Shown: in pieces, positions 52,068 to 62,750 of the stretch | How the letters are laid out: every line of letters starts with the position of its first letter | Position numbering within the stretch: position 1 is the first letter of the stretch | Source: Sphingomonas beigongshangi | GTDB lineage: Bacteria > Pseudomonadota > Alphaproteobacteria > Sphingomonadales > Sphingomonadaceae | NCBI RefSeq assembly: GCF_016820445.1 | Contig: NZ_JADHDT010000001.1 | Coordinates: 62,001 to 126,000 of the forward strand | Direction: 5' to 3' | DNA: 64,000 nucleotides | Program-made: the position numbers and the translations under genes | Notes under the pieces: generated by a model | Database searches by the model: none | What the model saw: the letters and a program-made list of their open reading frames with translations, nothing else | Told to the model about the DNA's origin: nothing

Positions 52068-54668
52068 TTAGTCCAGGTTGGGGCGCAGCCAGCGCGTCGC
52101 CTGCGCGATGTCGACGCCACGCCGCGCCGCATAGTCCGACACCTGGTCCTCGCCGATCCGCGCCACGCCGAAATATTCCGCCTGCGCATGGCCGAAATAG
52201 AAGCCGCTGACCGCAGCCGTCGGCAGCATCGCAAAGCTTTCCGTCAGCTCGATGCCGACCTTCGCCTCGGCGTCGAGCAGGTCGAACAAGGTCCGCTTGA
52301 GACTGTGCTCCGGACAGGCCGGATAGCCCGGCGCCGGACGGATGCCACGATATTGCTCGCGGATCAGCGCCTCGTTGGTCAGCTGCTCGCCTTGCGCATA
52401 GCCCCACAGATCGGTGCGGACATGCGCATGCAGCCGCTCGGCGAATGCCTCGGCGAGGCGGTCGGCGAGCGCCTTGAGCAGGATGTCGTTGTAATCGTCG
52501 TGCGACGCCTTGAACGTGGCGAGATGCGGCTCGATCCCGTGGATGCCGACCGCGAAGCCGCCGATCCAGTCTCCGGCCGGATCGATGAAATCGGCGAGGC
52601 ACATGTTCGCGCGCCCTTCGCGCTTGGCGATCTGCTGGCGCAGGAAGGGCAGCCGCGCGCCTTCGTCCAGCACCACATCGTCGCCGTCGCGGCGGCACGG
52701 CCACAGCGCGGCCACGCCCCTGGCGGTCAGCCACTTCTCCGCGACGATGCGATCGAGCATCGCCTGGGCATCGGCATAGAGCGAACGCGCGCTTTCGCCG
52801 ACGATCGCATCGTCCAGGATCGCGGGGAAATTGCCCGCCAGTTCCCAGGCGCGGAAGAATGGCGTCCAGTCGATGTAGTGCCGCAGGTCCTCGAGATCCC
52901 AGTCATCGAAGACGTGCACGCCGGGCCGGTTCGGCGCGGGCGCCTTCAGCATCATGTCGGCGACGAAACCCCGACCCCGCGCCTCGGCGAGCGGCAGCAG
53001 GTCGTTCTGCCCCTTGCCCGCGCGCGCATCGCGCACCTTCTGATATTCCGCCGCGATGTCGGCGACATAGGGATCGCGCTGCGTGTCGGAGACCAGGGTC
53101 GTCGCGACGCCGACCGCGCGGCTGGCGTCGAGCACATGCACCACCGGCCCGTCATAGGCCGGCGCGATGCGCAGCGCGGTATGCACCTTCGACGTCGTCG
53201 CCCCGCCGATCAGGAGCGGCATGCGCATCTCGGCGCGCTGCATTTCCTCGGCGACCGTCACCATCTCGTCGAGCGAGGGAGTGATCAGACCCGACAGGCC
53301 GATCATGTCGGCATCGTTCTCGTTCGCCGCCTCGATGATCTTCGCCCAAGGCACCATCACGCCCAGGTCCACGACCTCGAAACCGTTGCACTGCAGGACG
53401 ACGCCGACGATGTTCTTGCCGATATCGTGCACGTCGCCCTTGACCGTCGCCATGATGACGCGACCCTTGGCGCGCGACCCCGCCGCCTTCTCCGCCTCGA
53501 TGAACGGCAGCAGATGCGCGACCGCCTTCTTCATCACGCGCGCGGACTTGACGACCTGGGGCAGGAACATCTTGCCGCTGCCGAACAGGTCGCCGACGAC
53601 GTTCATGCCGTCCATCAGCGGACCTTCGATCACCTCGATCGGGCGGCCGCCGCGCGCGGCGATCGCGGCGCGCGCTTCCTCGGTGTCGTCGACGACATGC
53701 GCGTCGATGCCCTTGACCAGCGCATATTCCAGCCGCTTGGTGACATCCAGGCTGCGCCATTCCGCCGCCTGCTTCTCCGCGACGGCGTCGGTGCCACGGA
53801 ACTTCTCCGCCAGCGCGACGAGCCGGTCCCCTGCCTCCGGATCGCGGTTGAGGATCACGTCCTCGCAGGCGATCCGCAGTTCCGGATCGATCGTGTCGTA
53901 GACGTCGAGCTGGCCTGCGTTGACGATGCCCATGTCCATGCCGGCGGGAATGGCATGGTAGAGGAACACCGAGTGCATCGCGCGGCGCACCGGTTCGTTG
54001 CCGCGGAAGCTGAACGACAGGTTCGACAATCCGCCCGAGATATGGACGTGCGGGCAGCGCGCCTTGATCTCGCGACACGCCTCGATGAAGTCGACGCCGT
54101 AGTTGTTATGCTCCTCGATCCCCGTCGCGACCGCGAACACATTGGGGTCGAAGATGATGTCCTCCGGCGGGAAGCCGATCGTCATCAACAGCTTGTAGGC
54201 GCGCTCGCAGATCTCGACCTTGCGCGCCTTGGTATCGGCCTGCCCGACCTCGTCGAACGCCATGACGACCACCGCCGCGCCATAGGCCATGCACAGCCGC
54301 GCCTGTTCGAGGAACTGCGCCTCGCCCTCCTTCATGCTGATCGAGTTGACGATCGGCTTGCCCGACACGCACTTCAGCCCGGCCTCGATCACGCTCCACT
54401 TCGAGCTGTCGATCATGATCGGCACGCGCGCGATATCGGGCTCGGCGGCGATCAGCTTGAGGAAGGTCGTCATCGCATGGTGTGCGTCGAGCAGGCCTTC
54501 GTCCATGTTGACGTCGACCACCTGCGCCCCATTCTCCACCTGCTGGCGCGCGACCTCGACCGCACGGGCATAGTCGCCCGCCATGATCATCTTCTTGAAC
54601 GCCGCCGATCCGGTGACGTTGGTCCGCTCGCCGATGTTGACGAACTGGGTGGAGGAGCTGGTGGTCAT
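52068..54668 (-). CDS. metH: Methionine synthase, cobalamin/pterin/activation half
   Basis: An 866-residue enzyme that transfers the methyl group of methyltetrahydrofolate to homocysteine through cobalamin. Domains in order: pterin-binding (from [11 protein letters not shown]), the cobalamin cap, the B12-binding Rossmann domain with [11 protein letters not shown] (His414 is the lower axial ligand), and the SAM-dependent reactivation domain with [14 protein letters not shown] and [17 protein letters not shown]. The homocysteine-binding domain is missing and is made by the separate gene starting at 55829. Splitting of MetH is known in alphaproteobacteria. Confidence 0.97.
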
Positions 54669-54782: not shown

Positions 54783-55829
54783 CTACGCCGCCATCGTGAA
54801 CGGCTCCAAGCCGGCGAGCCGCGTGCGGACCGGCGGGGTCGGGATGACGCGGGGTGCCACGCCCTTCACCCGCTCCGCGATCGCCGCGATATGCGCGGGC
54901 GTCGAGCCGCAGCAGCCGCCGAGGACGTTCACCTGCCCCGCCCCCGCCCATTCGTAGACGAGCCCCGCCGTCGTGGCCGGTGCCTCGTCATAGGCGCCGA
55001 GTTCATTGGGAAGGCCGGCATTGGGATAGACCATGATCAGCGTATCGCAGATCTCGCTGAGCGTCCGGATGTGCGGCCGCAGCTGTTCCGCGCCGAACGA
55101 GCAGTTCAGCCCGATCGTCAGCGGCTTCGCGTGCCGCACCGCATGCCAGAATGCCTCGACCGTATGGCCCGACAGATTGCGCCCCGACAGGTCGGTCAGC
55201 GTCATCGAGAGCATGATCGGCACGTCGCGACCGCGATCCCGCCCCGCATCGAGGGCGGCCATGATCCCGGCCTTGGCGTTGAGCGTGTCGAACACCGTCT
55301 CGATCAGCACGAAATCCGCGCCGCCATCCAGCAGCGCGTCCGTCTGTTCGCGATAGACGCCCTTCAGATAATCGAAGTCGATCTCGCGAAACCCGGGATC
55401 GTTGACGTCGGGCGACAGCGACAGCGTCTTGTTGGTCGGGCCGATCGCACCCGCGACGAAGCGCGGGCGCCCGTCCCTCGCCTGGAACTCGTCCGCGATC
55501 GAACGCGCGAGCTTGGCGCTCTCGTAATTGATCTCGCGCACCAGATGTTCGGCGCCGTAATCGGCCTGGCTGATGCTGTTCGCGGAAAAGGTATTGGTTT
55601 CGGCTATGTCCGCCCCCGCCTCGAAATAGGCCCGGTGAATGGCGGCGGGCACGTCCGGCTTGGTCAGCGCGAGGATGTCGTTGTTGCCCTTCTGGTCGTG
55701 ACCGAGGCCCAAGTCGCCGGCATAATCGGCCTCGGAGAGCTTCCAGTTCTGGATCTCCGTGCCGAAGGCGCCATCGGTGATCAGGATGCGCTTGGCGGCT
55801 TCCGCCAGGAAGATGTCGCGTGTCGTCAT
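54783..55829 (-). CDS. metH: Methionine synthase, homocysteine-binding half
   Basis: A 348-residue zinc enzyme with the homocysteine S-methyltransferase fold. It holds the substrate while the partner protein delivers the methyl group. The zinc ligands are seen in GLNCSFGAEQ (Cys) and LGGCCGSTPAHI (Cys-Cys). N-terminal ILITDGAFGTEIQNW and ADIAETNTFSANSISQADY match MetH rather than MmuM. The start at 55829 (MTTRDIFLAEAAKR) was preferred to 55904, which lies inside an inverted repeat. The gene is between metF and the larger metH gene. Confidence 0.95.
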   Translation of the reverse strand: MTTRDIFLAEAAKRILITDGAFGTEIQNWKLSEADYAGDLGLGHDQKGNNDILALTKPDVPAAIHRAYFEAGADIAETNTFSANSISQADYGAEHLVREINYESAKLARSIADEFQARDGRPRFVAGAIGPTNKTLSLSPDVNDPGFREIDFDYLKGVYREQTDALLDGGADFVLIETVFDTLNAKAGIMAALDAGRDRGRDVPIMLSMTLTDLSGRNLSGHTVEAFWHAVRHAKPLTIGLNCSFGAEQLRPHIRTLSEICDTLIMVYPNAGLPNELGAYDEAPATTAGLVYEWAGAGQVNVLGGCCGSTPAHIAAIAERVKGVAPRVIPTPPVRTRLAGLEPFTMAA

Positions 55830-55842
55830 TGTCTCATCCTTC

Positions 55843-55953
55843 AAGCCCCTCCCCTTGATGGGAGGGGTTGGGGTGGGGCGCCGGCGTCTCACCGGGTCCG
55901 ACATTTTGCGGACGGGCCCCGCCCTCCACCCCTCCCCCGAAGGAGAGGGGCCT
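55843..55953. repeat. Inverted repeat between metF and the metH homocysteine half
   Basis: The left arm CCCCTCCCCTTGATGGGAGG, then GGTTGGGGTGGGG, pairs with the right arm CCCCGCCCTCCACCCCTCCC, then CCGAAGGAGAGGGGCC. The loop is GC-rich with a TCCGACATTTTGCGGA sub-hairpin. It occupies the whole gap between the two genes. It resembles the 54680-54780 element in layout but not in exact sequence. Confidence 0.75.
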
Positions 55954-55961
55954 GTTTCACG

Positions 55962-56903
55962 TCAAGCCGCCGCCACCGCGGCCCGGTCCTTCGCCCGCAC
56001 GCCCAGCAGGTGACAGATCGCGAAGGCGAGTTCCGCGCGGTTAAGCGTGTAGAAATGCAAGGCCTTGACCCCGCCCGCGTAGAGCTTGCGGCTGAGCTCC
56101 GCCGCGAGCGTCGCGGCGACCAGCTGCCGCGTCGCGGGATGGTCGTCGAGCCCTTCGAACAGACGGGCCATCCAGGCGGGCACGTCGGTCCCGCACATCG
56201 CGCTCATGCGCTGGACACTCGCGAAGTTCGCCACGGGCATGATCCCCGGAACGATCTCCGCATCGATGCCCGCCGCGGCCACGGCATCGCGATACCGGAA
56301 AAAGGTTTCCGGCTCGAAGAAGAATTGCGTGATCGCTCGCGTCGCGCCGGCATCGATCTTGCGTTTCAGATTGTCGAGGTCGGCGGCCGGGTTCGGCGAG
56401 TCCGGATGGCATTCGGGATAGGCCGCCACCGACACCTCGAACGGGTGCAGCCGCTTCAGTCCAGCGACCAGCGCGGCCGCATTCTCGTAGCCGCCCGGAT
56501 GGCTCTGGAAGCGCGTGCCCGCCGCGGGCGGATCGCCACGCAGCGCGACGATGTGGCGGACGCCCGCCGCCCAATATTCGTTGGCGACCTGATCGATCTC
56601 CTCACGCGTCGCCTCGACGCAGGTCAGATGCGCGGCCGCCGCGAGGCTCGTCTCGCGCTGGATGCGTGCCACCGTCGCATGCGTCCGCTCGCGCGTCGAC
56701 CCGCCCGCGCCGTAGGTGACGGAGACGAAGCTCGGCCCGAGCGGCTCGAGCGTGCGGATCGCGTCCCACAGTTGCGCGTCCATCTTCTCCGTCTTGGGCG
56801 GGAAGAATTCGAACGACACGTCCAGGTCGCCCGCCACGTCGGCATAGAGCGGCGCCTTGAGCGCGATCTGCGCTTCCTCGAGCTGGTTCACCGAAATCGT
56901 CAT
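55962..56903 (-). CDS. metF: Methylenetetrahydrofolate reductase
   Basis: A 313-residue FAD enzyme that makes methyltetrahydrofolate, the methyl donor for MetH. The conserved core is complete: DVSFEFFPPKTEKMD, FVSVTYGAGGSTRERTHA, HIVALRGDPP, VSVAAYPECHPDSP, ITQFFFEPETFFRY and VPGIMPV. Length fits the family (about 300). Its start overlaps the regulator gene's stop by 4 bases (ATGA), so they form one transcript that continues into the metH halves. Confidence 0.97.
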   Translation of the reverse strand: MTISVNQLEEAQIALKAPLYADVAGDLDVSFEFFPPKTEKMDAQLWDAIRTLEPLGPSFVSVTYGAGGSTRERTHATVARIQRETSLAAAAHLTCVEATREEIDQVANEYWAAGVRHIVALRGDPPAAGTRFQSHPGGYENAAALVAGLKRLHPFEVSVAAYPECHPDSPNPAADLDNLKRKIDAGATRAITQFFFEPETFFRYRDAVAAAGIDAEIVPGIMPVANFASVQRMSAMCGTDVPAWMARLFEGLDDHPATRQLVAATLAAELSRKLYAGGVKALHFYTLNRAELAFAICHLLGVRAKDRAAVAAA

Positions 56904-57868
56904 GCCACACCAACCCTTTTCCTAGGCACTTCACGTAGTCGCGCGCCGGGTCTCACGCCCAGCCACAAGGTGACCGTCAAATCGCCGCCTTCCAGCGTGC
57001 GTGTTTCCGCGAGGCCCAGCCCGGCCTTGCCGAACCAGCCCGCGATCTGCGCATCCGCAAACCCGAGCCGGGTGTGCGCGTCGCGCGTGCGCAGCTCCTC
57101 CCGGTCGTGGGGTGCGAAGTCGGCAATCAGCAGCCGCCCGCCCGGCCCCAGCACGCGCGCCGCCTCGGCGATCGCCGCCCCCGGCTGCTGTGCGAAGTGC
57201 AGGACATGGTGTAGGATGGCGACATCCGCCGCACCGTCGCCGAGGGGCAGCGCATAAAGGTCCGCCTGGCGCAATTCGGTGTTCGATCGGTCGTGCAGCT
57301 TCGCCCGCGCCAGCCGCAGCATTTCCGACGAACGGTCGATGCCCAATGCCGCGTCGGCCTGTCCTGCGAACAGCTCCAGCATGCGCCCGGTGCCCGTTCC
57401 GATATCGATCAGCTGGCCGATCGGTGCGGGACCGATCAGCGCTGCCATCGCCGCCTCGACCTGTTCCTCCGCCACGTACAGCGAGCGGATCGCATCCCAT
57501 TCGCCGGCATGTCCCTCGAACCACTGCGCCGCACTCGCCGCGCGATCCGCGCGCACCGCGGCGAGACGCGCGGCATCGGCCACCGCCCAGTGATCGGGCT
57601 GCTCGGCATGCCATTGGTCCAGCGCCGCCGCGACCGGCGCCGTGGAGGCCTGCCGCCCGAGGGCGACGAATACCCAGCTTCCCTCCTTGCGTCGCTCGGC
57701 AAGACCCGCGTCGCACAGGATCTTCACGTGCCGCGATACGCGCGGCTGGCTTTGGCCCAGCACCTGCGCCAGTTCCCCGACGGACAATTCCATCGACCGC
57801 AGCAGCGAGAAGATCCGCAGGCGGGTCGCGTCGGCAAGGGCGCGGAATATGTCGAGGGCTTGGCTCAC
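56900..57868 (-). CDS. ArsR-type regulator fused to a SAM-dependent methyltransferase domain
   Basis: A 322-residue two-domain protein. Residues 10-75 form an ArsR winged helix (LADATRLRIFSLLRSMELSVGELAQVLG, QPRVSRHVKIL). From about 115 a class I methyltransferase fold follows with the SAM-binding GQLIDIGTGTGRMLELF and DVAILHHVLHF. The methyltransferase part may sense SAM or SAH rather than catalyse. Proteins of this build next to met genes are known as SahR-like repressors. It starts 7 bases from a 24-bp palindrome and is the first gene of the met operon, consistent with self-repression. Confidence 0.93.
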   Translation of the reverse strand: MSQALDIFRALADATRLRIFSLLRSMELSVGELAQVLGQSQPRVSRHVKILCDAGLAERRKEGSWVFVALGRQASTAPVAAALDQWHAEQPDHWAVADAARLAAVRADRAASAAQWFEGHAGEWDAIRSLYVAEEQVEAAMAALIGPAPIGQLIDIGTGTGRMLELFAGQADAALGIDRSSEMLRLARAKLHDRSNTELRQADLYALPLGDGAADVAILHHVLHFAQQPGAAIAEAARVLGPGGRLLIADFAPHDREELRTRDAHTRLGFADAQIAGWFGKAGLGLAETRTLEGGDLTVTLWLGVRPGARLREVPRKRVGVA

Positions 57869-57875
57869 GGGATCA

Positions 57876-57899
57876 ACATATAAAGATATCTTTATATGT
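57876..57899. promoter_or_regulatory. 24-bp perfect palindromic operator for the met regulator
   Basis: A perfect 24-bp palindrome with the half-site ACATATAAAGAT, centred between 57887 and 57888. It ends 7 bases before the regulator start and 70 bases before the divergent lipoprotein gene, and it is the most A/T-rich spot in this stretch. ArsR dimers bind such symmetric A/T-rich sites, so this is probably the operator for the ArsR-methyltransferase gene, and perhaps for the lipoprotein gene. Confidence 0.85.
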
Positions 57900-57969
57900 G
57901 GTCAACGCGGAGCCGAAACGCGCGGGCAGCGTTGCACCACACCTGGATCAACTGAAAGGGAGACATAAA

Positions 57970-58320
57970 ATGAAGCGGATCGTCCTTCTCGCGGCCATCC
58001 CCGCGCTCGCACTCGGCGCATGCAGCCGGAACGCGCAGGAGCAGACCGAGCAGGCGGGCAACGCGATCGCCGCCGATGCGAGCGCGACCACCCGCAACGC
58101 CGCGAGCGACGTGTCCTCCGCCACGGACGAAGCGTTCGGCAAGGCCGAGCGTGGGCTGGACCGTGCCGGCGATCACATCGCCAACGCGACCGACCGCGCG
58201 GGCCGCGCGATCGACCGCGGCGCCGACGATGCCGGCCGCGCCATCAGCAACGGTGCCGATCGCGCCGCCGACGCCACCGGCAACACGCTGGAAAAGGCCG
58301 GCCGCGCGCTGAAGGACTGA
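57970..58320 (+). CDS. Small lipoprotein with helical repeats, unknown
   Basis: A 116-residue lipoprotein with lipobox LALGAC (Cys18). The mature part is a string of charged Ala-rich repeats (GKAERGLDRAGDHIANATDRAGRAIDRG) with a helical pattern like that of stress- and LEA-like proteins. No enzyme signature. The start at 57970 follows a GGGAGACAT ribosome site. It is divergent from the ArsR gene and may share its palindrome. Confidence 0.75.
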   Translation: MKRIVLLAAIPALALGACSRNAQEQTEQAGNAIAADASATTRNAASDVSSATDEAFGKAERGLDRAGDHIANATDRAGRAIDRGADDAGRAISNGADRAADATGNTLEKAGRALKD

Positions 58321-58444
58321 TAGTGACCGCCGTCATGCCGCCCGAACGCACCACGGCGGGGCGCGGCATGACGGTAGTCCGGCCGGCCGGCGGTCCGAGC
58401 ATTATCGCTTGTGCGGACACGCTATTGGATCGCACAGTCCGGTC

Positions 58445-58639
58445 ATGATGCGCCGCCTGATGTCAGCCGCCCTCCTCGGACTTTCCGCCACCGCCTGTCG
58501 CCAGGCGCCGGACGAGCCGGCCCGCGCCATCACCGCTGACGAGGCGCGACAGCTGAACGAGGCGGCGGACATGTTGGATGCCAACAGCGTCGACCTCAAC
58601 GCGATCGACCCCTACCAGAACGGAAGCGACCCCGCATGA
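58445..58639 (+). CDS. Very small lipoprotein upstream of the aldo/keto reductase
   Basis: A 64-residue lipoprotein: MMRRLMSAALLGLSATACRQ, with the lipobox Cys at 18, followed by a short acidic mature part (ITADEARQLNEAADMLDANSVDLNAID). No family recognised. Its stop overlaps the aldo/keto reductase start by four bases (ATGA), so it is coupled to that gene. A second in-frame ATG directly follows the first. Confidence 0.7.
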   Translation: MMRRLMSAALLGLSATACRQAPDEPARAITADEARQLNEAADMLDANSVDLNAIDPYQNGSDPA

Positions 58640-59589
58640 CCGTGCCCCTCCGACGCCTCGGCTCCACCGACCTGCGCATCGCCCCGCTGGTGCTCGGCGG
58701 CAACGTATTCGGCTGGACGGCCGACCGCGCGGCCAGCTTCGCGGTGCTCGACGCGTTCGTCGACGGCGGCGGGACGATGATCGACACCGCCGATGTCTAT
58801 TCCGCCTGGGTCGACGGCCATCAGGGCGGCGAATCCGAGACGATGATCGGCGAGTGGCTGAAGGCGAGCGGCAAGCGCGATGCGGTGCTGCTCGCGACCA
58901 AGGTCGGCATGCTGCCGGGGGAAGGCGGCGAGAAGCTCGCGCCCGCGCGCATCGCCGCGGCGGCCGAGGCCTCACTGAAGCGGCTCGGCACGGACCGCAT
59001 CGATCTCTACTACGCGCACCAGGACGATGAGAGCGTTCCGCAGGAAGCGGTGCTCGAAGCGTTCGGCAGGCTGGTCGACGCCGGCAAGGTCCGCGTCATC
59101 GGCGCCTCGAATTTCCACGCCGCGCGTCTCAAATCGGCCAACGATGCCGCGAAAGCGAACGGCCTGCCCCGCTATCATGTGCTCCAACCCGAATATAATC
59201 TGGTCAGCCGCCACAAGTTCGAGGGTGAGCTGGAGGATTATTGCATCGCCGAGAACATCGGGGTGCTGCCATATTACGGTCTCGCCTCCGGCTTCCTGAC
59301 GGGCAAATACCGCAGTCGTGACGATCTAGGTAAGAGCGTGCGCGGCAATCGCATGGGCGACCTGCTCGAAGGCAAGGGCGCGTCCGTGCTCGGCGTCATG
59401 GACGACATCGCCGCCGAGACCGGCGCGACGCTGGCGCAGATCGCGCTAGCCTGGCTGATCGCGCAGGAAGGCGTGACCGCACCGATCGCCAGCGCGACCA
59501 GTGTCGAACAATTGCGCGACCTGTTGCCCGCGATGACGCTGGACCTGACCAAGGAACAGGTCGGTCGGCTGGACGCGGCCGGCGCGTGA
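58636..59589 (+). CDS. Aldo/keto reductase
   Basis: A 317-residue NADPH-dependent reductase with a TIM barrel. The catalytic tetrad is visible: Asp in MIDTADVYSAW, Tyr in the same motif, Lys in VLLATKVGML and His in LYYAHQDDE. Late motifs VIGASNFHAARL and LPYYGLASGFLTGKYRS also fit. It probably reduces carbonyls in the cytoplasm; the substrate is unknown. It is coupled to the small lipoprotein upstream and is convergent with the isocitrate lyase gene. Confidence 0.93.
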   Translation: MTVPLRRLGSTDLRIAPLVLGGNVFGWTADRAASFAVLDAFVDGGGTMIDTADVYSAWVDGHQGGESETMIGEWLKASGKRDAVLLATKVGMLPGEGGEKLAPARIAAAAEASLKRLGTDRIDLYYAHQDDESVPQEAVLEAFGRLVDAGKVRVIGASNFHAARLKSANDAAKANGLPRYHVLQPEYNLVSRHKFEGELEDYCIAENIGVLPYYGLASGFLTGKYRSRDDLGKSVRGNRMGDLLEGKGASVLGVMDDIAAETGATLAQIALAWLIAQEGVTAPIASATSVEQLRDLLPAMTLDLTKEQVGRLDAAGA

Positions 59590-59634: not shown

Positions 59635-61227
59635 TCAGGCGGCGAACTGGTTCATCGTGTTGTGGGCGCCGCCGGCCTTGAGCGCGGCCTCGCCCGCGAA
59701 ATACTCCTTGTGGTCGTCGCCGATGTCGCTGCCCGACATGTTCTGGTGCTTGACGCAGGCGATGCCCTCACGGATCTCGCGGCGCTGGACGCCCTTGACG
59801 TAACCCAGCATCCCCGCCTCACCGAAATACTCGCGGGCGAGATTGTCGGTGCTCAACGCCGCCGTGTGATAGGTCGGCAGCGTGATGAGGTGGTGGAAGA
59901 TCCCCGCGCGTGCGCTGGCATCCTTCTGGAACGTGCGGATGCGTTCGTCCGCCTCCGCCGCCAGCGCCGTATCGTCATAATCGGCGCTCATCAGCCGCGC
60001 CCGGTCATAGGACGCGACGTCGCGCCCTTCCCCGGCCCAGTGGTCGTAGACCTGCTGGCGGAAATTGAGCGTCCAGTTGAAGCTCGGCGAATTGTTGTAG
60101 ACGAGCTTGGCATCCGGAACCACGGCGCGGATGCGGTCGACCATGCCCGCGATCTGCTCGATGTGCGGCTTCTCCGTCTCGATCCACAGCAGGTCCGCGC
60201 CGTTCTGCAGCGACGTGATGCAATCCAGCACGCAGCGATCCGCGCCCGTGCCCTCGCGGAACTGGAAGAGGTTGGACGGCAGCCGCTTGGGCCGCATCAG
60301 CTTGCCGTCCCGTTCGATGACGACGTCGCCGCGCAGCGTCGACAGGTCGGTCACCTCCTCGCAATCGAGGAAAGCGTTATACTGGTCGCCGAGATCGCCC
60401 GGCTCGCGCGAATAGGCGATCTGCTTGGTGAGGCCCGCACCCAGCGAATCGGTGCGCGCGACGATGATGCCGTCCTCGACGCCCAGCTCGAGGAAGGCGT
60501 AACGGATCGCGCGGATCTTCTGCAGGAAATCCTCGTGCGGCACGGTGACCTTGCCGTCCTGGTGGCCGCACTGCTTCTCGTCGCTGACCTGGTTCTCGAT
60601 CTGCAACGCGCAGGCGCCGGCCTCGATCATCTTGCGCGCCAGGAGATAGGTCGCCTCGGCGTTGCCGAAGCCGGCATCAATATCCGCGATGATCGGCACG
60701 ACGTGCGTCTCGTGATTGTCGATCGCCTGCTGCACGCGCTGGGCCTCAACGTCGTTCCCGGCCGCCCGCGCCTTGTCGAGGTCGCGGAACAGCAACGACA
60801 GTTCCCGCGCATCCGCCTGCCGGAGAAAGGTGTACAGCTCCTCGATCAGGGCCGGCACGCTGGTCTTCTCATGCATCGACTGGTCGGGCAGCGGGCCGAA
60901 TTCGCTCCGCAATGCGGCGATCATCCAGCCCGACAGATAGAGGTAGCGCCCCTTGGTCGACCCGAAATGCTTCTTGATCGCGATCAGCTTCTGCTGCCCG
61001 ATGAAGCCGTGCCAGCATCCCAGCGACTGCGTATAGGCGGCGGGATCGGCGTCATAGGCCGCCATGTCGCGGCGCATGATCGCGGCGGTATGGCGGGCGA
61101 TATCCAGCCCGGTGCGGAATCTGTTCTGCAGGCGCATCCGCGCCACGGCCTCCGCATCGATGCCGCCCCAGGCAGGTTGGGTTTCGATCGCCTGTCGCGC
61201 GTGTCCGATGGCTTGCTGGTAGGTCAT
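59635..61227 (-). CDS. aceA: Isocitrate lyase (long form)
   Basis: A 530-residue enzyme of the glyoxylate shunt that splits isocitrate into glyoxylate and succinate. The catalytic Cys220 is in the variant motif EKQCGHQDGK, in place of KKCGHxGGK of the E. coli enzyme, a form I know from long bacterial isocitrate lyases. IADIDAGFGNAEATYLLARKM gives the metal-binding part, and LLWIETEKPHIEQIAGM, NNSPSFNWTLNF complete the barrel. Needed for growth on acetate and fatty acids. The regulator gene upstream is a likely controller. Confidence 0.96.
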   Translation of the reverse strand: MTYQQAIGHARQAIETQPAWGGIDAEAVARMRLQNRFRTGLDIARHTAAIMRRDMAAYDADPAAYTQSLGCWHGFIGQQKLIAIKKHFGSTKGRYLYLSGWMIAALRSEFGPLPDQSMHEKTSVPALIEELYTFLRQADARELSLLFRDLDKARAAGNDVEAQRVQQAIDNHETHVVPIIADIDAGFGNAEATYLLARKMIEAGACALQIENQVSDEKQCGHQDGKVTVPHEDFLQKIRAIRYAFLELGVEDGIIVARTDSLGAGLTKQIAYSREPGDLGDQYNAFLDCEEVTDLSTLRGDVVIERDGKLMRPKRLPSNLFQFREGTGADRCVLDCITSLQNGADLLWIETEKPHIEQIAGMVDRIRAVVPDAKLVYNNSPSFNWTLNFRQQVYDHWAGEGRDVASYDRARLMSADYDDTALAAEADERIRTFQKDASARAGIFHHLITLPTYHTAALSTDNLAREYFGEAGMLGYVKGVQRREIREGIACVKHQNMSGSDIGDDHKEYFAGEAALKAGGAHNTMNQFAA

Positions 61228-61358
61228 GTCGCTGCCTCGCTGTGTAAGTGCAGCCTCTGTATGTCACTTCACAGCCGGATTACGAAAAAACTGCTCCAAT
61301 AGCGCGTTTCCAAGTCAACATCGGGCCGGGCCGTTTGTAATTTTGTAAATATTTTTCA
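61228..61358 (-). promoter_or_regulatory. aceA upstream region with direct TTACAAA repeats
   Basis: The 131 bases between aceA and the regulator gene include two TTACAAA words on the minus strand in an 8-base spacing (complements at 61334-61340 and 61342-61348), as well as TTACGAAA at 61280-61287 on the plus strand. This is the A/T-rich part of the gap. Regulators of the RamB/PrpR family bind sites with AAA-TTT-GCAAA-like repeats, so these are candidate operators; binding is inferred. Confidence 0.5.
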
Positions 61359-62750
61359 TCAATCGCCCGCGAAGGTGAACCCCGACACGCCCCGGTCCCG
61401 CTCGTTGATCAGGAGCGGCCTTCCGGCGGGTGGAGCAGAGCGCTGCGGACAATCACCGCGATGACAGGCCGCGCAGCCGAGACCGATTGGCGTCGCGTCG
61501 CCTTTGAGATCGATGCCGCGCGCGACCGCCAGCCCGCCCGCGACGTCCGCCGGCACGCCGAGCCCGACGGCGAATTCCGCGACCACCGCGCCGTACCGGC
61601 GACGTTGCGGCGTCACGGTGCGCGACACGGTGAGCCAGCGCGCGCCGTCCTCCAATTCGACCAACTGAACCGCGAGATCACCGGGCCGGTCGAAGGCGTG
61701 ATGCACGCGCCACAACGGGCATCGGCCTTTCGCCTCGGCCAGCGGTGAGGCGCTGGAGCCCGCGAACCGCTTCGAACATTGGCCGGCGCGATCGATCCGG
61801 ATCAGGAAGAACGGCAATCCCCGCGCGCCGACCCGGTGCAGCGTGGTCAGCCGGTGTGCGACCTGCTCGAACCCGGCGCCGAAGCGCCGTTGCAGCAGTT
61901 CGAAATCGTATCCGGTCGATTCGCATGCCCGCAGGAAGCGGGCGTAGGGCATCATCACGGCCGCGCCGAAATAGCTGGCGAGATGGCGCCGGAACAGCCG
62001 TTCGGAGGCCCGGTCCGCGAACCCCGCCCCCTTGGCGAGCGCGTCGATCTCCCCCCGCGCCTCGATCAGCGCCAGCTGATAGGCGGCCGCAAAGGTCCGC
62101 GACGCGGGATCGAGCGTCTCGCTCAGCTGCAGCTGGCGCGCGTGAAGATCGAGGCGGTGGAGCAGGTCGGGCATGACCTCGACCGGCAGGATACGGATCG
62201 TCAGCTGATGCTTGACGCGCAGACGCTCGGCGATGGCGCCATAGAGGTCGCCTGCCCCCAGGCGCAGCTCGTCGGCAAGATTCTCCGCCAGACCGTCCAG
62301 GTCGGGGAAATGTCCGCGCCAGCGCTCGATCTCCCGGCGGACTTCGCCGACGGGATCGACGCCCTCCGGCGCGACGCCGCTGCCGCCACCCGCGCCGAGC
62401 CGATCGTAGACCCGGGCGAACGCCTCCGCGCCACCCGGCGCGCCGGCGATCCATTCCGCCAGCTCGTTCCGATCGATTTCGAGGTCGGCGAAGATCGGAT
62501 CGGCCAGCCGCCGGCGGAGCGCCGACTCGCCGCCCCCCGGCTCCCCCGCGGTCAGCGCGCGCGGATCGAAGTCATAGGATTCGGCGAGCTTGACCAGCAA
62601 TGCCGCGGACAAGGGACGCTGGTTGCGCTCCACGAGATTGAGATAGCTGGGCGAGATGGCCATCGCCTCGGCCATGGCCGCCTGGGTCAGCCCTGCCTGC
62701 CGCCGCACCCGCCGCACGGCATGTCCCGCGAACAGCTTGCGTTCCGCCAT
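61359..62750 (-). CDS. ScfR/RamB/PrpR-like transcriptional regulator (HTH-XRE plus IrrE/DUF2083)
   Basis: A 463-residue regulator. An XRE helix-turn-helix lies at residues 10-65 (RQAGLTQAAMAEAMAISPSYLNLVERN). The middle belongs to the IrrE/ImmA (DUF955) group, without an obvious HExxH metal site, and the C-terminal part to the DUF2083 domain with the CAACHRGDCPQRS cysteine cluster near residues 432-440. In relatives such as PrpR of Mycobacterium these cysteines bind an iron-sulfur cluster and the protein senses acyl-CoA. It is directly upstream of aceA, fitting control of acetate or propionate metabolism. Confidence 0.9.
   Translation of the reverse strand: MAERKLFAGHAVRRVRRQAGLTQAAMAEAMAISPSYLNLVERNQRPLSAALLVKLAESYDFDPRALTAGEPGGGESALRRRLADPIFADLEIDRNELAEWIAGAPGGAEAFARVYDRLGAGGGSGVAPEGVDPVGEVRREIERWRGHFPDLDGLAENLADELRLGAGDLYGAIAERLRVKHQLTIRILPVEVMPDLLHRLDLHARQLQLSETLDPASRTFAAAYQLALIEARGEIDALAKGAGFADRASERLFRRHLASYFGAAVMMPYARFLRACESTGYDFELLQRRFGAGFEQVAHRLTTLHRVGARGLPFFLIRIDRAGQCSKRFAGSSASPLAEAKGRCPLWRVHHAFDRPGDLAVQLVELEDGARWLTVSRTVTPQRRRYGAVVAEFAVGLGVPADVAGGLAVARGIDLKGDATPIGLGCAACHRGDCPQRSAPPAGRPLLINERDRGVSGFTFAGD

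What the first reader, a model, noticed from the sequence alone, without database searches (positions are those of the whole stretch)
56900..57899. ArsR-methyltransferase fusion with a 24-bp perfect operator controlling a metF-metH operon
The sequence shows a 24-bp perfect palindrome 7 bases before the start of an ArsR-methyltransferase fusion, which overlaps metF, which in turn is followed by both halves of metH. SahR-like regulators of the SAM cycle are established in other proteobacteria. The inference is that this protein uses its methyltransferase-like domain to sense SAH or SAM and represses the whole operon and perhaps the divergent lipoprotein gene.
Basis: partly seen in the sequence, partly recalled or inferred. 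Interest (0 to 1): 0.72.

Follow-up and report, generated by a model that had tools for sequence, protein, structure and literature searches.

The report
SahR repressor of the methionine cycle
A Sphingomonas-type bacterium carries the already described SahR switch, a DNA-binding protein fused to a methyltransferase-like sensor that very probably turns on the enzymes that recycle a by-product of methylation; the regulator is ordinary, but its operator and promoter are packed neatly together, and at one target gene it is stacked with a vitamin B12 riboswitch.

Summary
A perfect 24-bp palindrome (57876-57899) ends 7 bases before the GTG of an ArsR-methyltransferase fusion; metF (4-bp overlap) and a split metH follow. 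In 59 family genomes, sites occur in 48 of 54 that have the regulator and in 1 of 5 without it, a draft whose contig breaks at the site. Of 62 family sites that I placed, 53 precede ahcY, metK, sahR or metE. This is SahR, whose regulon is published for 7 of 7 Sphingomonadales (PMC4239095): a new member of a known kind. SAH as effector comes from published Desulfovibrio work and was not tested here. Control of the lipoprotein is not supported: a TTGAC -35 abuts the operator on the sahR side in 70 of 77 loci, on the other side in 0 of 77. Two details that I did not find described: the operator fills the -35/-10 spacer and overlaps the -10, with the start codon where the transcript should begin; and 12 of 12 full metE genes in 61 genomes of the genus carry a SahR site, a -35 and a cobalamin riboswitch in series.

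The parts
56900..57868 (-). sahR: ArsR-type winged helix (res. 13-58) fused to a class I SAM/SAH-binding methyltransferase domain (res. about 150-255) with a conserved C-terminal extension
   Evidence: Pfam/NCBIfam; alignments A1 and A2 with invariant D155-x-G-T-G-T-G161, D178, D203; model with mean pLDDT 89.9
57876..57899 (.). operator: perfect 24-bp palindrome; 16-bp core ATAAAGATATCTTTAT
   Evidence: genome copies; conservation
57900..57905 (-). -35 element TTGACC, directly abutting the operator
   Evidence: TTGAC beginning 8-11 bases before the core in 70 of 77 loci. Not found by the general promoter scan, whose rule demands T as last base of the -10
57877..57882 (-). -10 element TATATG, inside the right half of the palindrome (17-bp spacer)
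   Evidence: column conservation; inferred, not mapped
55962..56903 (-). metF, methylenetetrahydrofolate reductase, overlapping the sahR stop by ATGA
   Evidence: PF02219, TIGR00676 over its cut-off; a metF match lies in the same locus in 81 of 81 loci
54783..55904 (-). metH part 1, homocysteine-binding domain (PF02574)
52068..54668 (-). metH part 2, pterin-binding, B12-binding and activation domains
57970..58320 (+). divergent small lipoprotein gene; neighbour, no evidence of SahR control
   Evidence: NF047840 below its cut-off

Best explanation
The gene is sahR and the palindrome is its operator. A SahR dimer binds the palindrome through its ArsR-type winged helices. At its own promoter it covers the space between the -35 (TTGACC) and the -10 (TATATG) and the -10 itself, so RNA polymerase cannot engage, and sahR-metF-metH1-metH2 is off. 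The same protein holds back ahcY, metK and metE through three further sites. When S-adenosylhomocysteine rises it binds the methyltransferase-like domain, SahR leaves the DNA, and the genes for SAH hydrolysis, homocysteine remethylation and SAM synthesis are made together, SahR included (negative feedback). Shown here: the sequences, the sites, their neighbours, the conservation and the promoter-like motifs. Taken from published SahR work: SAH as effector and repression by binding. Inferred from geometry: steric block and a leaderless operon transcript.
For: Four sites within 2 mismatches of the core in 3.6 Mb, before sahR, metE, ahcY and metK, where 0.012 are expected by chance (gene names). 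Site present in 48 of 54 family genomes with the protein and in 1 of 5 without it (G025, where the site sits at a contig end beside a gene that by eye resembles the window's lipoprotein). Neighbours of the 62 family sites placed: ahcY 26, metK 16, sahR 10, metE 1, none 9. Operator within 2 mismatches upstream of sahR in 77 of 81 loci (80 named loci and the window), with a metF match in the same locus in 81 of 81. TTGAC at the fitting place in 70 of 77 on the sahR strand, 0 of 77 on the other. Residues of the SAM/SAH motif invariant. Published: SAH-responsive SahR in Desulfovibrio; SahR regulons in 7 of 7 Sphingomonadales; core sahR, ahcY, metH, metH2, metF, metK (PMC4239095).
Against: No binding or expression was measured. 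6 of 54 family genomes with the protein have no site within 2 mismatches (G010, which has one at 3, and G030, G032, G038, G039, G045), so the operator drifts or the role differs there. 9 of the 62 placed sites have none of the expected genes. The general promoter scan finds no promoter at the sahR start, and 7 of 77 loci lack the TTGAC. The motif logo of the paper (Figure S1) is not held, so the match with the published alpha-proteobacterial SahR motif was not checked letter by letter. No experimentally studied SahR protein was aligned with this one.
Confidence: 0.93

Rival explanations
1. Same regulator and regulon, but the effector is SAM (as suggested for SamR of Xanthomonadales): SAM acts as co-repressor or inducer.
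For: The methyltransferase fold can bind both SAM and SAH (general knowledge), and metK is in the regulon. PMC4239095 leaves the effector of the distant homologue SamR open.
Against: ahcY, the SAH-removing gene, carries a site here and accounts for 26 of 62 placed family sites; the same paper argues for SAM in SamR because other SAM-cycle genes are missing from the SamR regulon. The Sphingomonadales regulators are counted there as SahR.
Confidence: 0.08
2. The protein is an active methyltransferase that also binds DNA, and its activity matters more than ligand sensing.
For: The cofactor motif is intact and invariant, and the C-terminal part has invariant H254, R260, H265, L268, G269, F270 that could line a substrate pocket.
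Against: Sites, operon and regulon fit a sensor. The published mechanism needs only SAH binding (abstract of the 2014 SahR paper recalled; summarised in passages of PMC8877191).
Confidence: 0.05
3. It is a metal- or arsenic-responsive ArsR regulator beside an ArsM-like domain.
For: NCBIfam's best hit is the metalloregulator ArsR/SmtB subfamily, over its cut-off; ArsM-type methyltransferase models score below their cut-offs.
Against: No cysteine is among the invariant or nearly invariant columns; the sites of the own genome are at SAM-cycle genes.
Confidence: 0.01
4. The palindrome controls the divergent lipoprotein gene as well.
For: It lies in the shared intergenic region, 70 bases before the lipoprotein start; a relative of the lipoprotein is divergent from sahR in 35 of 81 loci, 33 of them within 330 bases.
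Against: TTGAC abuts the operator on that strand in 0 of 77 loci. Most loci in which no lipoprotein was found keep the operator. The distance from operator to lipoprotein runs from 70 to 330 bases in 33 loci and over 1100 in 2. Promoters of another type further down were not excluded.
Confidence: 0.07

Closest known systems
SahR (ArsR family), Novichkov et al. 2014, Environ Microbiol 16:1-8 (not held; recalled); regulons in PMC4239095
   Same: ArsR family with a methylase-related domain (recalled from the abstract); palindromic operator; regulon sahR, metF, metH, metH2, ahcY, metK, sometimes metE; described for 7 of 7 Sphingomonadales genomes
   Different: Nothing essential. The palindrome here is perfect over 24 bp where the paper speaks of a 20-bp motif. 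The promoter geometry and the metE-riboswitch pairing are details that I did not see in the passages read.
SamR of Xanthomonadales (PMC4239095)
   Same: Distant homologue (about 30% identity to SahR by the paper), 24-bp palindrome, methionine genes
   Different: Its regulon lacks SAM-cycle genes other than metK, and its effector is unknown; the present regulon includes ahcY.
SahR of Ensifer aridi (PMC8877191)
   Same: Site upstream of sahR, ahcY, metH, bhmT, metK; the paper reports the highest sahR expression in the deletion strain, taken as autoregulation (passages)
   Different: A rhizobium; bhmT is named among the targets, metE is not.
Cobalamin riboswitch of metE (RF00174)
   Same: Present upstream of metE in the same genome and in 12 of 12 full metE loci of the genus sample; PMC5770649 lists a cobalamin element at Zymomonas metE (passage)
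   Different: Here it follows a SahR operator and a -35 on the same leader, giving two inputs.

Membership tests
SahR | N-terminal ArsR winged helix fused to a methyltransferase-like domain | tested here: met
   PF01022 and PF08241 over cut-off; order of helices and strands in the model fits both folds
SahR | Cofactor pocket able to hold SAH/SAM retained | tested here: met
   Invariant D-x-G-T-G-T-G (155-161), D178, D203 in alignments of 25 and 35 sequences, window included; that these are pocket residues is recalled from class I methyltransferases. Foldseek's list includes SAH-bound methyltransferases. Ligand binding itself not tested
SahR | Conserved palindromic operator upstream of sahR | tested here: met
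   77 of 81 loci within 2 mismatches of the core
SahR | Core regulon sahR, ahcY, metH, metF, metK | tested here: met
   Sites in own genome at the sahR-metF-metH operon, ahcY, metK and metE; 53 of 62 placed family sites at sahR, ahcY, metK or metE
SahR | Same operator letters as the published alpha-proteobacterial motif | not tested
   The motif logo is in Figure S1, which is not held
SahR | Sequence orthology with an experimentally studied SahR (Desulfovibrio alaskensis) | not tested
   No sequence of that protein was compared. The named relatives include Zymomonas and many Sphingomonadales, an order listed with SahR in PMC4239095
SahR | Represses targets; SAH releases it from DNA | not testable with these tools
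   needs protein and expression work
SamR | Regulon without SAM-cycle genes other than metK | tested here: not met
   ahcY carries a site here and accounts for 26 of 62 placed family sites

The most novel reading that the evidence does not exclude
In Sphingomonas, metE is a two-input gate on one leader: a SahR operator ends exactly 3 bases before a TTGAC -35, and a cobalamin riboswitch follows, in 12 of 12 full metE genes found in 61 genomes of the genus. The B12-independent enzyme, which PMC4239095 calls more than 100-fold slower than MetH, would then be made only when SAH is high and B12 is low, while the same SahR frees the B12-dependent MetH. In addition, the sahR operon would start as a leaderless transcript from a promoter whose spacer and -10 are the operator.
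Probability: 0.7. Interest if true: 0.4.

Novelty: new member of a known kind. Interest (0 to 1): 0.27.

Why it matters
It settles the finding as the published SahR system and gives a clean regulon (sahR-metF-metH, ahcY, metK, metE) for a Sphingomonas genome. For those who model methyl-cycle control it adds a conserved operator-promoter layout that seems to differ in a regular way from target to target, and a two-input arrangement at metE (SAH through a protein, B12 through RNA) that can be tested with a reporter.

Tried and rejected
The inverted-repeat search over 56500-57300 found nothing because the palindrome lies at 57876. The general promoter scan found no promoter at the sahR start: its rule demands T as last base of the -10, and the candidate is TATATG, so that promoter rests on conservation, not on the scan.

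One search used a metK query one base out of frame; one search repeats it corrected, and only its counts are used. Of the 137 family sites counted (own 4 included; recount) the listing shows 75. I placed 62: 28 listed loci, 2 loci from the unlisted part (L076, L077) and 32 that I fetched. The other 15 listed sites abut the sahR matches by position and were left out of the fetch, so sahR is under-counted in the 62; the remaining sites were not examined. The 9 placed sites without an expected gene: L067 (contig end; by eye a lipoprotein gene like the window's follows, so probably the sahR locus cut off), L103, L104, L106 (all from G040, whose control pattern also hits twice), and L080, L083, L086, L091, L097 (for L086 I looked at the frames and saw no methionine gene; the others were not looked into). 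The 3-mismatch site on contig C8 of the own genome (L017) has none of the queried genes nearby and is counted as chance.

SAH and SAM_alpha riboswitches were sought in 11 genomes (own, the 5 without SahR, and 5 with SahR but no site) and not found, but the controls did not ring either, so this says nothing. An EcfG-like motif (GGAGC-N16-CGTT) before the lipoprotein gene: the pattern matched in 2 of 33 loci, the window one of them, against 0.9% of shuffles: too weak to claim. No listed solved structure matched both domains by sequence; Foldseek's alignments that span both domains have rmsd of about 16-20 A and are not used. A search for leaderless transcripts in Sphingomonas listed no paper.

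Full report
What is there. On the minus strand, 56900-57868 encodes a 322-residue protein with an ArsR-type winged helix (PF01022, 43.9 bits) and a class I methyltransferase domain (PF08241, 79 bits). Its stop overlaps the start of metF by ATGA; metF (55962-56903) is followed after 57 bases by the homocysteine-binding part of metH and after a further 114 bases by the part with pterin, B12 and activation domains. Seven bases before the GTG start lies the palindrome ACATATAAAGATATCTTTATATGT, 57876-57899. It is the longest perfect even palindrome in the window, 6 bp longer than the next, in DNA of 67.6% G+C; 0.015 would be expected by chance.

The window lies in a 3.6-Mb genome held in 24 contigs. 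The full palindrome with up to 3 mismatches occurs at three places, and the 16-bp core ATAAAGATATCTTTAT with up to 3 mismatches at five; the mirror-image control gives none. Four of the five (0, 0, 0 and 2 mismatches) lie 11 bases before sahR, 383 before metE, 90 before ahcY and 17 before metK, counted from the core. ahcY and metK pass their NCBIfam cut-offs; metE passes the Pfam cut-off PF08267, while the 373-residue piece held in L010 scores below the whole-protein NCBIfam cut-offs. The fifth site (3 mismatches) has none of the queried genes near it. For a random sequence of about this composition 0.012 sites with up to 2 mismatches are expected. So each of the strong sites found marks a gene of the SAM cycle.

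Of 59 genomes of the family, one per genus and own included, 54 have a full relative of the protein (best match 160 bits or more; in G007 and G056 it is in two pieces) and 5 have only weak domain matches (G008, G014, G017, G025, G026). Sites within 2 mismatches, anywhere in the genome, occur in 48 of the 54 and in 1 of the 5 (Fisher p = 0.002). The exception, G025, is a draft of about 380 contigs; one of its two sites sits at base 4 of a contig that goes on with a gene that by eye resembles the window's lipoprotein (L067), and the other lies before ahcY (L101), so sahR is probably lost to a contig break; without G025 the table is 48 of 54 against 0 of 4 (p = 0.0005). The genomes are related, so these p-values are only a guide. 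Six genomes have the protein and no such site. The mirror-image control hits in 5 of the 59 genomes (6 hits). One search counts 137 sites in all, but its listing was cut at 75. I placed 62 sites (30 loci given by the search, 32 fetched): 26 precede ahcY, 16 metK, 10 sahR, 1 metE, and 9 none of these. Fifteen more listed sites abut sahR by position and were not fetched; the rest were not examined. Of the five genomes without SahR, four (G008, G014, G017, G025) also lack a close metF, as does one genome with SahR (G032); G026 has metF.

Relatives, named. A scan of public genomes kept the best 80 of at least 591 loci, mostly Sphingomonas, also Sphingobium, Sphingopyxis, Zymomonas and acetic acid bacteria. 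With the window that makes 81: a metF match lies in the same locus in 81, the first metH part in 70 and the second in 68 (flanks of 3 kb, some cut short), the lipoprotein in 35. The best core match between 250 bases upstream and 30 bases into the gene has 0 mismatches in 45, 1 in 18, 2 in 14, and 3 or 4 in 4, these last all in acetic acid bacteria. In the earlier set of 29 unnamed relatives' loci, 25 have a site within 2 mismatches, one more at 3, and 3 none; 27 of the 29 have metF.

Promoter layout. Aligned on the operator, the 77 loci with up to 2 mismatches show TTGAC beginning 8 to 11 bases before the core in 70, and in none on the opposite strand. In the window TTGACC (57905-57900) abuts the palindrome, a 17-base spacer runs through it, and TATATG (57882-57877) in its right half is the -10. 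The operator thus occupies spacer and -10. Eight bases separate the -10 from the GTG, about where the transcript should start, so the operon mRNA is probably leaderless; this is inference. Zymomonas differs, with the site 168 bases before the start. At ahcY the operator seems to abut a -35 that follows it: TTTGC or TTTGA comes within 10 bases after the core in 16 of 27 loci (1 of 27 on the other side). At metK a -10-like YTAR lies 7-22 bases before the core in 12 of 17 loci (1 of 17 on the other side), so there the operator would lie over the start of transcription. These motifs were chosen after looking at the loci. All are fitting places for a repressor.

metE. In the own genome a cobalamin riboswitch (RF00174, 109.5 bits) lies between site and metE. 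Of 61 genomes of the genus, 13 match the MetE N-terminal family, 12 of them with a full match; the thirteenth, G069, has one weak match below the cut-off and was set aside. All 12 have the operator (0 mismatches in 5, 1 in 4, 2 in 2, 3 in 1) with TTGAC exactly 3 bases after the 24-mer, and the riboswitch. This is a two-input layout: SAH through SahR at the promoter, B12 through RNA in the leader. I found no description of the pair: the search with SahR, cobalamin riboswitch and metE (first 20 of 1,794 papers listed, most unrelated), the search with cobalamin riboswitch, metE and Sphingomonas (one paper, PMC8123684, whose passages do not name SahR), and passages of PMC4239095. Supplements and subscription journals were not seen, and PMC4239095 does count metE in some SahR regulons, so the pairing may be implicit in its tables.

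Protein. In alignments of 25 and 35 sequences (window included) the SAM/SAH-binding motif D155-x-G-T-G-T-G161, D178 and D203 are invariant; no cysteine is. The AlphaFold2 model has mean pLDDT 89.9 and pTM 0.82; the order of its elements reads as a winged helix, a long helix (93-128) and a Rossmann-type domain. No listed solved chain matches both domains by sequence.

What is known. PMC4239095 (outline, first part of Results, and passages read) reports SahR as an SAH-responsive ArsR regulator, a palindromic operator of 20 bp, a core regulon sahR, ahcY, metH, metH2, metF, metK, metE regulated in 29% of genomes within its groups, and SahR regulons in 7 of 7 Sphingomonadales. PMC8877191 (passages) summarises the Desulfovibrio result, that DNA binding depends on the SAH level, and takes its own data as autoregulation in Ensifer aridi. 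PMC7950407 (passages) calls PA0547 of Pseudomonas aeruginosa an orthologue of SahR. PMC5343134 (passages) counts SahR regulons in 62 genomes. The original SahR paper is not held; its abstract is recalled.

Limits. No binding or expression data; the motif logo and the Desulfovibrio protein were not compared; the named loci are the closest 80 and lean towards Sphingomonas; mismatch counts use the core of the window's own operator as reference.

Noticed in passing
G000:C10:604631-604654 (L010 1501-1524) to metE: SahR operator, TTGACG -35 and cobalamin riboswitch in series before metE; the same in 12 of 12 full metE loci of 61 genomes of the genus.
   Followed up: yes
window 57868-57905: sahR promoter with 8 bases between -10 and start codon: probably a leaderless operon transcript, with similar spacing in most of the 81 loci.
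   Followed up: partly
window 57970-58640: Divergent lipoprotein of the Ag473-like kind (below cut-off), followed by a second small lipoprotein-like frame (by eye); by eye a similar pair follows the operator at a contig end in L067. A weak EcfG-like GGAGC-N16-CGTT lies before the first.
   Followed up: partly
L154, L167, L168, L172, L177: Acetic acid bacteria carry a relative of this sahR (58-64% identity) with metF in the locus but an altered operator, 2 to 4 mismatches to the core; vertical or horizontal descent not examined.
   Followed up: no
G008, G014, G017, G026: Family members without SahR and without sites within 2 mismatches; the first three also lack a close metF. What controls the SAM cycle there is unknown.
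   Followed up: partly
window 59635-62750: A frame that looks like isocitrate lyase (59635-61227, -) beside a helix-turn-helix regulator of about 460 residues (61359-62750, -); names by eye, no family search run.
   Followed up: no
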